The position numbers and the translations under genes were made by a program. Under the pieces are notes generated by a model that made no database searches, was not told where the DNA came from, and was given only the letters and a program-made list of their open reading frames with translations. Positions 38,876 through 43,644 of a DNA stretch of 64,000 nucleotides are shown one piece after another. The first letter of the stretch is position 1; the number at the start of each line of letters is the position of its first letter. The stretch comes from Leptodactylus fallax (lineage: Eukaryota > Chordata > Amphibia > Anura > Leptodactylidae), in the NCBI GenBank assembly GCA_947044405.1, contig CAMRHE010000655.1:620001-684000 (forward strand), read 5' to 3'.

Positions 38876-39280
38876 TGTGACAGCTTGGGGGAATTAGACT
38901 CAAATGGTGGCTTTTCCTGGTCCCAACAGCAGTGGTTCGTGGTACTGGGCGCCGGTGAGACAGCGTTCAGACGGTGCCAATATAAAACAAAGTGGCTTTA
39001 TTACAGCTTAAGGGCAACATAACAAAACAACAAACAAAACCTAGGCCGCCGTTAGGGCCCTAACTCACTTATAGAGCCCCTCACTAGCCTGACTCTTGCT
39101 CAGCTCTAGCAAAGAGTCTCCGGTGGACCTCAGTCCTGCTGGCACAGACCATCTATCTGTCCAGTTGGGTCCACCATTTCCTGCTCTGTGCAGGATACTC
39201 CAGCCCTCAGGAGTTACACGCCACCCTCAAAGGTGTGGCTGAGAGCCTTTTCAGGGCTGGGCCTGGCTCACATACTCACA
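38876..39280 (-). repeat. 3' LTR
   Basis: The same length as the 5' LTR, with four substitutions. The last ten codons of the long ORF and its stop lie inside it. Confidence 0.9.
38997..39002 (-). terminator. Polyadenylation signal in the 3' LTR
   Basis: AATAAA on the minus strand inside the 3' LTR, downstream of the ORF stop at 39251. Confidence 0.65.
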
Positions 39281-42200
39281 TACCCTCCCCCTCAGCTCAC
39301 TACCCATGGGGTGAGCTACAATGGGACGAGACATCCTATGATGAAGTCCCTCTTCAACCAAATATGCCTGTTCAGTGTCTCTCCAGAAGTCCCAGTCAGG
39401 CGGTCTTTTCTTCCAAATACTGCTCCGTCGAGTTCTCCGTTTTCTCATCACTTTAAATGCTACGCCAAGATCCTGGCCATTCTGTACAAAGGCAAGTTCT
39501 CCTTCATCACCTTCAAAATTCGCCATACAAGAGATCACATCATTTTCATCACATTTCTCGCCGTACTCTTCAGCCATCCCATTGCATGACCTTGATCCCT
39601 TTAGTGAATAGCTGTAAGAATCTTCATCTTTACCTATCATGAATCCACAGGAGCTCAGAGACCAAATAACACGTACTTCATGCACATCAATGTCTTTAGA
39701 GTATAACTGTTTCACGGGTACTTTTTCCATAACCTTCATTCCAAAGCAAACTTTGTCATCACCATCAAGGCTTAGAAGTTTAGGAGACATAGGCTGCTTG
39801 CTCTCTTCTTTGTTTGAGATACACAAGCTCTGCACTGCAATATCTTCTCCTCTTTTTGGGTTGACTATATTATTGTATCTCAGCCTCTTCTTGTTGCTAT
39901 TAGCATCAGGCGGTAAAACAACTTCTGCCTCTTCTCTTCTTTTTGGGTTGACTGTATTACTTCCTGACTCCCCCTTCACAGACAACATGGAGTCATAATT
40001 CACCATTTGTCCACCAGACATTTGGCTAGAGACAGGCACAGCAACACCTTTATCCACAATGGCTTCAGACACTTTAGCTGTTGGGACAACATATGCGTGG
40101 TCAGTCTTCTTACGGACTCTTGTTCCACACTTTTGGTGACCCTTCACCTTATTTACCATCTCACAGTCCTCTAGGCTTTGAACCTCATTGGTTTGAAGCT
40201 GGACCCACTCTGTCACAGGCAGTGTGTGACCAATCACAGTTTCTTCTTCTGTTGGACCTTCTTTGGCCTCCTCACAATTTGCAGGAAGTCCACCTTTAGC
40301 AGCATCTTCCTGGGGAACTATACCCTCTACTTGACGTTTTACCGAATCACATGGTTTCATCATAATCTGATCATTGGTATCTATGCCGGCAGCTTTCTCT
40401 AATTCTAACGCCTTCTGTAGTGCACAAATCTCTGATTCCAGCTCCAGAACTGCCACATTTTTCTGAGCAGCCTCCATCTCAGTTTTTACTATTGCAACTT
40501 GCAGAACTTCCTCAATCTTCCTGACACCTATGGCAGCAGATGTAGATGCCATCTCTTTATCCACTATGTCTCCTAATTCTAGGATATTCTGCAGCGTTCT
40601 TCTAACATTTGTCAGGTCAGCATCCGGGATGATATTTTCTGCTTCCCTCACTGTTCCCTGAATTATATTAAATTGATCCTCCAACATCTTCTGATAAAGC
40701 TTCTGCTCATCTGCAGACTTTTTGTCAAGTCTTTCATTCAAGTCCCGTATCTCAGTGGCTCTCTTATCTTGCTCTTGGTTGAATAAAGACTCTAGTTCTT
40801 GAATCATATTTTTCAGGGATAACAGCTCTAATTCTTTAGAGGTTAACAGGCTCTGCAGCGAGTCCTTCTCAGCTTCTAGTGCTGCCAGCTTTGAAGATAG
40901 GGCAGATGCCGACTGTTCAGTATTGGATAAAGACTGCTGCAATCGATCCAATTCTTCTCTTTTAGATTCCACTTTGACTTTCAACTGTTCCATCTGAAAC
41001 CCCAGCTGTTTCTTGATTTCCTCCTGCTTGTTCACTTGCACCTTTAGTTTAGCAACAAGCATTTTTAAATCAACAATCTCAGCAGACAAATTAGACAGAT
41101 TTCCCTCAAACTGAATCTTCATGTCTTCTATCTGGAGGTCCAATTCTCTCTTGGCCTTTTCCAGCTTGTCATAAGCATTAGCTTTGTTCTCATACAATAT
41201 CTGCACAGATTCCAGGTTTTTCTCAACTTCATCCTTGGAGCTAACCAAATCCTCCATTTCAGTGCGCAGTTGCTTGTTGAGCCTCTCTAACTCGGCCTTC
41301 AATTCAAGGGCCTCTTCTAGGGAGTGAGTCAAGGCAAGAGCTTTGGTCTCTTTTCCACGAGCCTCTGCTTCAGCACGGTCACGTTCTTCTGCATATCTAG
41401 CAGAAAGAGTCTTCTCTTCACCAAGCCGTTGATCAAACTTTTTCTGCTTCCTTTCCAAATTTGACACCATCCGACGTTGATGATCAAGATCTACACCTAC
41501 AACTTCTAGTTCCTGCTGCAGTCTAATTTTCATCTTCTCAAGTTTGTCATAAGCAGCAGCCTTCTCCTCAGACCGTTGATTTGTAGCTTCTAGCTCCTTT
41601 TGCAACTTTTCCTTTAGTTCTTCAACAGAGTCCAAGGACCCAATACTATCCTCTATTTTTTTCTTCATATCAGTCGCCTGAGCCTGTAGTGTTGAAATCT
41701 GCTTTGTCAAATCTCTTTTTGCTATCTCTTCTTCCTCTAGTTGCTCAAGGAAACCATTTTTCTCATCTTCCATTTGTTTTAGTTTTGTACTAAGGTCAAG
41801 CTTCTGCCGGGTTTCTTCTTGCAAAAGTTCCTGAGTGTCCTGAAGCTGCGATTCTAGTGTAGAAAAATCTTTGGAAAGTTTGATAAACTTGCTGTCTGCT
41901 TGAGAAAGAAGCCCTGTGACATTATTCAATTCTTCGTCTTTATTTTGCACCAAAACAGACAACGTCTCATTATCTTCACAAAATCCTGACAGCGCCCTCT
42001 CCAGGCTACATACTCTAGCTTTGAGTTCCCTTTCTCTTTGTTCCAGAACTCCAGCTCTACTTTGCCATTCGTGGATTTCACTATTTAAGCGAACCTGATG
42101 CAAGTTTTGCTCTGACTGCAATGTCTGCAAAAATTCACTTCTCTCACGTTTAGCAGTTTCAAGGTCATCTCTTAATTTTTCAATGACACTCTCTTTGGCA

Positions 42201-43237: not shown

Positions 43238-43239
43238 TA

Positions 43240-43644
43240 TGTGACAGCTTGGGGGAATTAGACTCAAATGGTGGCTTTTCCTGGTCCCAACAGCGGTGGT
43301 TCGTGGTACTGGGCGCCGGTGAGACAGCGTTCAGACGGTGCCAATTTAAAACAAAGTGGCTTTATTACAGCTTAAGGGCAACATAACAAAACAACAAACA
43401 AAACCTAGGCCGCCGTTAGGGCCCTAACTCACTTATAGAGCCCCTCACTATCCTGACTCTTGCTCAGCTCTAGCAAAGAGTCTCCGGTGGACCTCAGTCC
43501 TGCTGGCACAGACCGTCTATCTGTCCAGTTGGGTCCACCATTTCCTGCTCTGTGCAGGATACTCCAGCCCTCAGGAGTTACACGCCACCCTCAAAGGTGT
43601 GGCTGAGAGCCTTTTCAGGGCTGGGCCTGGCTCACATACTCACA
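43240..43644 (-). repeat. 5' LTR
   Basis: On the minus strand it starts TGTGAGTATGTGAGCC and ends AGCTGTCACA. It contains CTATAAGT (43432-43439) about 70 bp before AATAAA (43361-43366), the spacing expected for promoter and polyadenylation signals within one LTR. Confidence 0.9.
43432..43439 (-). promoter_or_regulatory. Putative TATA box of the 5' LTR
   Basis: CTATAAGT on the minus strand, upstream of the AATAAA signal and correctly oriented for transcription of the ORF. Confidence 0.6.

What the first reader, a model, noticed from the sequence alone, without database searches (positions are those of the whole stretch)
38876..43644. Young LTR retroelement whose only gene is a fusion of myosin II, HIP1-like and hnRNP U-like host sequences
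Seen: matched 405-bp LTRs, a 4-bp duplication (ATAT), a candidate primer-binding site, a polypurine tract, and one 1172-codon frame with no gag, pol or env. Known: YAEERDRAEAEA and RKQKKFDQRL text is characteristic of non-muscle/smooth-muscle myosin II rods; VDKEMAATSAAI-like text of the HIP1/HIP1R C-terminal region; NGQDLGVAFK of the hnRNP U SPRY domain. Inferred: an LTR element acquired spliced host mRNA segments from at least three genes, as acutely transforming retroviruses do with one, and it has been copied in trans as a non-autonomous family.
Basis: partly seen in the sequence, partly recalled or inferred. Interest (0 to 1): 0.96.

Follow-up and report, generated by a model that had tools for sequence, protein, structure and literature searches.

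The report
Jumping gene built from host genes
A repeated mobile element in a frog-like genome carries, instead of viral genes, one long gene made of spliced pieces of three ordinary host genes that it likely picked up one after another while being copied from RNA, and one seam of that fused gene is found at more than 1,500 places in the genome.

Summary
Window 38876-43644 is an LTR element (405-bp LTRs, 4 differences; ATAT duplication) whose one long frame (1172 codons) fuses MYH9, HIP1R and HNRNPU pieces. The three source genes were located in the same genome as separate intron-bearing genes on three contigs; the window copy crosses 4, 6 and 4 of their exons with introns missing, relatives up to 5, 8 and 6. 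The insertion is on a second contig too and one MYH9/core junction occurs at 1,571 places (control 0), so it is no misjoin. Empty HIP1R (57) and MYH9 (326) sites survive, so the fusion was assembled stepwise; the HIP1R insert is flanked by 10- and 6-base words shared with the host mRNA, as template switching would leave. Stops are rarer than simulated, but frameshifts are common and amino-acid constraint is weak. Closest precedents: maize Bs1 and crocodilian ERVs with captured genes. Helper, primer tRNA, source of the first ~170 residues, expression and function remain unknown.

The parts
38872..38875 (.). target-site duplication ATAT, left copy
   Evidence: sequence; 4-bp duplications also at 6 of 6 solo LTRs examined
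38876..39280 (-). 3' LTR, 405 bp, TG...CA
   Evidence: genome-wide 40 of 4138 first-look candidates were scored and all 40 match
39281..39293 (-). polypurine tract GAGGGGGAGGGTA
   Evidence: same kind of tract before the 3' LTR of 9 of 11 LTR pairs, damaged or deleted in L015 and L017
39251..42769 (-). single long open reading frame, 1172 codons, stop inside the 3' LTR
39251..39448 (-). C-terminal tail of the frame (aa 1108-1172), source unknown
39449..39760 (-). HNRNPU SPRY piece (aa 1004-1107; about residues 281-384)
   Evidence: 4 host exons of C200 joined, 89-93% nucleotide identity
39761..40381 (-). linkers (aa 797-1003): subfamily-B linker plus the end of the linker found in subfamily A; source unknown
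40382..40507 (-). core, second part (aa 755-796), old myosin-rod-like
40508..41017 (-). HIP1R piece (aa 585-754; residues about 483-804 with internal deletions)
   Evidence: 6 host exons of C19 joined, 87-95% nucleotide identity
41018..41230 (-). core, first part after MYH9 (aa 514-584)
41231..41926 (-). MYH9 rod piece (aa 282-513; residues about 1281-1520)
   Evidence: 4 host exons of C226 joined, 93-97% nucleotide identity
41927..42769 (-). N-terminal core (aa 1-281), source of the first ~170 aa unknown
42770..43219 (-). 5' untranslated leader
43220..43237 (-). primer-binding-site-like 18-mer, tRNA not assigned
43240..43644 (-). 5' LTR, 405 bp
43645..43648 (.). target-site duplication ATAT, right copy

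Best explanation
This is an LTR retroelement without any recognisable gag, pol or env gene whose single long reading frame joins spliced pieces of the host's own HNRNPU, HIP1R and MYH9 genes, likely taken up one after another by template switching of reverse transcriptase between element RNA and host mRNA, and it is likely copied in trans by enzymes of a helper element not yet found. Shown here: the LTR anatomy, the fused frame, absence of the host introns, three separate source genes, junctions repeated at hundreds to over a thousand places, surviving forms without HIP1R and/or MYH9, and a HIP1R insert at one core site flanked by words shared with the host mRNA. Inferred: the order of captures (core with HNRNPU, then HIP1R, then MYH9, then deletions and a linker swap), template switching as the joining step, and copying in trans. 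Predicted and untested: the frame is translated, and the coiled-coil protein (or its translation) would help the element's own RNA spread, which would explain fewer stops than chance while the amino acids drift almost freely.
For: Anatomy and frame. Fusion identity. Host genes with introns on C19, C226 and C200, and element pieces crossing 8 HIP1R (L030), 5 MYH9 (L032) and 6 HNRNPU (L029) exons; 6, 4 and 4 in the window copy. Simpler forms: L029 without HIP1R and MYH9; L030 and L031 with HIP1R and no MYH9 insert (L031 has one 21-residue, 57% MYH9 match inside the core); L032 with MYH9 and long HIP1R. The L029 core aligns without gaps to MYH9 residues 1013-1132 across the HIP1R site (40 of 120 identical, 0 of 200 heptad-preserving shuffles as good), so the empty state is ancestral there. 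Places genome-wide, up to 3 mismatches, backwards-pattern control 0 in each: MYH9/core junction 1,571, empty MYH9 site 326, HIP1R/core exit junction in its long form 389, empty HIP1R site 57; duplicated contigs are not removed from these counts. Shared words at the HIP1R junctions: 10 bases entry, 6 exit; random junctions reach 10 with p 7.5e-5 and 6 with p 0.003. Tree of 15 copies needs 4 label changes, the minimum. Stops among LTR-chosen copies: at most 4 of 200 simulations as few in 9 of 10 pairs.
Against: MYH9 junctions share only about 3 bases and 2 (by eye), too few to tell from chance. Frameshifting indels are common: over 13 copies (L009 left out) against L017, 37 indels are whole codons and 39 are not, and the codon counts ignore them. 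dN/dS between LTR-chosen copies is inside the simulated neutral range in 10 of 10 pairs. In the set all 21 pairs lie under the neutral mean but only 3 of 21 at the 2.5% tail, the pairs are not independent, and the 7 copies are biased to few stops: L029-L032 were picked for long frames, and window, L017 and L019 had no stop. Low host-element dN/dS (0.23-0.39 in 15 copies) includes constraint on the host gene, and stops there are not clearly depleted in several copies (for example L012, L029, L015). No helper, transcript or protein was shown; no tRNA was found for the PBS. Drawn at the midpoint, the tree puts L029 beside L031 (92/87), which also allows loss of HIP1R in L029, though the ungapped core alignment speaks against it.
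Confidence: 0.8

Rival explanations
1. The fusion is a dead passenger: host sequence was captured by the element, the frame is open only where copies are young, and nothing in it is used.
For: dN/dS among LTR-chosen copies is within the neutral range; 37 whole-codon against 39 frameshifting indels in 13 copies; 17 of the 21 matches of 960 residues or more carry 1-3 stops; solo LTRs and broken copies are common.
Against: Stops are fewer than simulated in 9 of 10 LTR-chosen pairs (at most 4 of 200 simulations as few) and in the 21 pairs (biased sample); whole-codon indels are about half rather than the third that chance alone would give (the third is my own expectation, not a call); host-element dS of 0.09-0.18 against LTR differences of about 0.3-8% puts the captures before the present insertions.
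Confidence: 0.33
2. One capture of a pre-existing host fusion transcript or fused retrogene, with the simpler copies arising later by deletion.
For: All pieces are in sense orientation and in one frame; deletions did happen in the family; L029 falls beside L031 in the tree.
Against: Empty sites are exact, and the HIP1R one is continuous with the older myosin-like core; 57 and 326 places carry empty HIP1R and MYH9 sites; the three source genes are on separate contigs.
Confidence: 0.08
3. Assembly misjoin or contamination.
For: Assembly in 2215 contigs with at least one duplicated locus.
Against: 1,571 junction copies with zero in the control; host genes in the same genome 86-100% identical exon by exon.
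Confidence: 0.01

Closest known systems
Maize Bs1 LTR retrotransposon
   Same: LTR element with segments of three different host genes and a chimeric gene (passages of review PMC13317346; original papers not held)
   Different: Bs1 is a plant element with other genes; here the host is frog-like, forms with empty insertion sites survive, and one junction is at 1,571 places. Bs1 copy number was not looked up.
Crocodilian ERVs carrying KIT-ligand or nectin3 (Chong et al. 2014, PMC4299795, passages read)
   Same: Vertebrate LTR elements that captured a host mRNA, with open frames and reported purifying selection
   Different: One gene each, beside the viral domains or replacing env; here no viral gene is recognised and several host genes are chained
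LTR-mediated retroposition (Tan et al. 2016; seen only through passages of review PMC5408686)
   Same: Template switching at microsimilarities between element RNA and cellular mRNA inside particles
   Different: Described there as formation of retrocopies; here the product became a transposing family and kept acquiring pieces
Acutely transforming retroviruses (recalled)
   Same: Replication-defective proviruses with transduced spliced host coding sequence, dependent on a helper
   Different: Usually one or two genes; here no gag is recognised and the family is amplified in a genome

Membership tests
LTR retroelement | paired LTRs with TG...CA ends | tested here: met
LTR retroelement | target-site duplication of fixed length | tested here: met
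   4 bp: window ATAT; 6 of 6 solo LTRs examined; L029, L031, L032
LTR retroelement | PBS complementary to a tRNA 3' end | tested here: inconclusive
   TGG-starting sequence at the right place, no tRNA assigned
LTR retroelement | polypurine tract before the 3' LTR | tested here: met
   window; 9 of 11 fetched LTR pairs
Autonomous Ty3/gypsy element or endogenous retrovirus | gag and pol genes | tested here: not met
   no gag or pol family in the window frame or in the L017 and L029 frames; other frames and the extra inserts of L011, L014 and L026 were not scanned
Bs1-like transducing LTR element | segments of several unlinked host genes without introns in one frame between LTRs | tested here: met
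Acutely transforming retrovirus | retained viral sequences plus mobilisation by a helper | not tested
   no helper identified
Processed pseudogene | no LTRs; one parent gene | tested here: not met
   LTRs present; three parent genes

The most novel reading that the evidence does not exclude
A vertebrate retroelement lineage has discarded gag, pol and env and built itself a replacement structural protein by serially recruiting host coiled-coil rods (old myosin rod, HIP1R, MYH9) and an HNRNPU SPRY piece, which assembles with its own RNA and lets a helper's enzymes spread it: a host-derived substitute for Gag.
Probability: 0.15. Interest if true: 0.96.

Novelty: new variant of a known kind. Interest (0 to 1): 0.84.

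Why it matters
Host-gene capture by retroelements is mostly known (recalled) from single-gene cases, from plants, or from oncogenic viruses. Here the source genes and forms with empty insertion sites survive in one vertebrate genome, with exact empty and filled sites, so the steps, junction preferences and timing of capture can be measured rather than guessed. It also poses a testable question: whether, and why, a 1,200-codon frame made of host rods has been kept open while the family spread.

Tried and rejected
Tried without result: source of the N-terminal ~170 residues (homolog search of residues 1-290: 2955 candidates, none at E <= 0.001, limited to proteins of 0.55-1.75 times the query length; Pfam; PDB). 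A weak collinear match of core residues ~176-349 to MYH9 858-1020 did not beat heptad-preserving shuffles (11 of 200 as good). One search looked in the held loci for the RPP motif of the element's tail and for a narrow integrase motif and found element copies and stray matches; it missed the integrase-like frame of L023, which with an RT-like frame lies on the other strand, outside the matched element parts (likeness recalled). No helper was sought genome-wide. One search's HNRNPU rows were out of frame and are replaced; one search's exit-junction value of 1 came from an exon end off by one base and is replaced. L009 is the window locus on another contig, not an independent copy; it is left out and of my indel sum, but was included. 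Rejected: misjoin, one host gene, one-step capture (see rivals). Literature: listings (no paper); passages of three papers; the DOIs of a Bs1 paper and of Tan et al. were not held.

Full report
What was claimed. The finding describes an LTR element at 38876-43644 whose only gene fuses myosin II, HIP1-like and hnRNP U-like sequence.

Check of the observation. The two LTRs are 405 bp and differ at 4 positions. They are flanked by ATAT on both sides. The sense strand is minus. A TGG-starting PBS-like 18-mer follows the 5' LTR and a polypurine tract precedes the 3' LTR. The frame of 1172 codons runs from 42769 to 39251 and stops inside the 3' LTR. Pfam finds Myosin_tail_1 (E 1.4e-94), SPRY (2.1e-9) and the HIP1 clathrin-binding domain (9.1e-8), and lists no retroviral family.

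It is a real, large family. The whole genome (2.5 Gb, 2215 contigs, unnamed; best protein hits are frogs) was searched. The LTR search gave 4138 first-look candidates, of which 40 were scored and all 40 matched. The protein search gave 6332 candidates, 39 scored; of the 21 matches there that cover 960 residues or more, 4 have no stop, one of them the window copy itself, and 17 have 1-3. Eleven LTR pairs were fetched and examined first. One of them, L009, is the window locus again on another contig: 8801 bp at 99.78%, 1 mismatch and 18 gap bases. It is not independent, but it does show the same insertion in two assembled sequences. Six of six solo LTRs examined have 4-bp duplications. A 35-base word across the MYH9/core junction occurs 805 + 766 times with up to 3 mismatches; the same word read backwards occurs 0 times. 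Duplicated contigs are not removed from such counts.

The sources are three separate host genes, taken as spliced mRNA. With parts of the proteins that the window element lacks, the host genes were located: HIP1R on C19, MYH9 on C226, HNRNPU on C200 (for HNRNPU many intronless copies answered too, and C200 was taken as the gene because its exons are separate). Host stretches were fetched. Element pieces match 8 consecutive HIP1R exons (L030), 5 MYH9 exons (L032) and 6 HNRNPU exons (L029), with introns absent and 90-100% nucleotide identity per exon piece in L029-L032; the window copy has 6, 4 and 4 such pieces at 87-97%.

It was assembled in steps. Four further copies, chosen from the HNRNPU and HIP1R searches for long frames, show simpler forms. 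L029: core + HNRNPU. L030 and L031: core + HIP1R + linker + HNRNPU (L031 with a 1217-codon open frame). L032: core + MYH9 + long HIP1R + linker + HNRNPU. The window subfamily (B) and subfamily A carry all pieces with internal deletions, and B has a different linker. The second half of the core aligns without a gap to MYH9 1013-1132 across the HIP1R insertion site (40 of 120 identical; 0 of 200 heptad-preserving shuffles score as high): the core is partly an older, diverged myosin rod, and the site without HIP1R is the ancestral state. Empty sites remain at 326 places for MYH9 and 57 for HIP1R; the HIP1R exit junction in its long form is at 389; backwards controls 0 in each. Several loci hold both empty sites 213 bases apart (for example C500, C31, C54, C1009). 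A tree of the N-terminal core of 15 copies needs only 4 changes of architecture, the least possible; read from L029 it is a ladder L029, L031, L030, L032, A+B, though the root is not known and 6 of 12 inner forks are weak.

How the joins were made. Entry into HIP1R shares CAGGAGGAAG (10 bases) between core and host mRNA, and the exit shares GAGGAA (6 bases), both at the same core site, so nothing of the core was lost. Random junctions between the same sequences reach 10 bases with p 7.5e-5 and 6 with p 0.003 (whose host exon ends were off by a base or so). MYH9 joins share about 3 bases and 2 (by eye), too few to tell from chance. Template switching at short similarities is the described route for LTR elements (review PMC5408686, passages). 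That it acted here is inferred.

Is the frame used? Neutral simulation with observed transitions, transversions and a CpG weight was the yardstick. Ten pairs among LTR-chosen copies: dN/dS indistinguishable from neutral in 10 of 10; stops fewer than simulated, with at most 4 of 200 simulations as low in 9 of 10 pairs and 18 of 200 in the tenth. Twenty-one pairs of 7 copies: dN/dS 0.40-0.66 against neutral means of 0.63-0.79; 3 of 21 at or below the 2.5% tail; stops 0-2 against 3.8-11.9. That second set is biased: four copies were picked for long frames and the other three had no stop. Against use: in 13 copies compared with L017, 37 indels are whole codons and 39 are not (L009 left out); codon counts ignore these. 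Host against element: dN/dS 0.23-0.39 in 15 copies, part of which is constraint on the host gene, and stops not clearly depleted in several of them. My reading: the frame has been kept open during part of the spread, with weak constraint on the amino acids, and single copies decay after insertion. A coiled-coil protein whose exact sequence matters little would fit; translation or function is not shown.

What is known. Bs1 of maize is the nearest relative in kind (three host genes in one LTR element; review PMC13317346, passages). Crocodilian ERVs captured one host mRNA each, with purifying selection reported (PMC4299795, passages). The listings of eight searches of the held open-access library showed me no vertebrate LTR family built from several host genes; most subscription papers are not in it. 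I class this as a new variant of a known kind.

Limits. No helper element, transcript or protein; primer tRNA unknown; source of the first ~170 residues and of the linkers unknown; extra inserts in L011, L014 and L026 not identified; letters from the genome were rationed, so selection rests on 15 copies at most.

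Noticed in passing
window 36865-45661 and L009: The same 8.8-kb locus is on a second contig (C491) at 99.78%, differing by 1 mismatch and 18 gap bases: a haplotig or duplicated contig with indel differences.
   Followed up: yes
window 37729-38091 and the flank to 38875: A frame that looks like a Tc1-type transposase fragment (recalled likeness) lies beside the element; the sequence up to the insertion point ...GTACCCACTGTATAT looks like the end of such a transposon (recalled), so the LTR element may have landed at its edge.
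   Followed up: no
G000 C31, C58, C148, C165, C197, C66, C514, C51: Several intronless copies carry a longer HNRNPU piece, reaching about residue 600-627 with a shared internal gap; C31, C58 and C165 also have an empty HIP1R site. Perhaps the oldest form.
   Followed up: partly
L011, L014, L026: These copies are longer than their kin, with extra stretches of about 1-2.4 kb inside the frame; what these are was not looked at.
   Followed up: no
L030:291-1220: An open olfactory-receptor-like frame of about 310 aa (recalled likeness) lies about 2 kb from an element copy.
   Followed up: no
P0001 (HIP1R of Mixophyes fleayi): The annotated HIP1R of this frog has an in-frame tandem duplication in the same coiled-coil region (by eye).
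   Followed up: no
window LTRs: The window copy's LTRs lack about 22 bp near their 5' end that the other examined independent LTR pairs have.
   Followed up: partly
L029, L031, L032 against window: The window LTR aligns to the L032 LTR at 76% over only 189 bp and gave no alignment to that of L029; the PBS of L029, L031 and L032 differs (TGGTGCTTYGGATGC...), although leader and frame are ~85% alike: the LTRs may have been exchanged.
   Followed up: no
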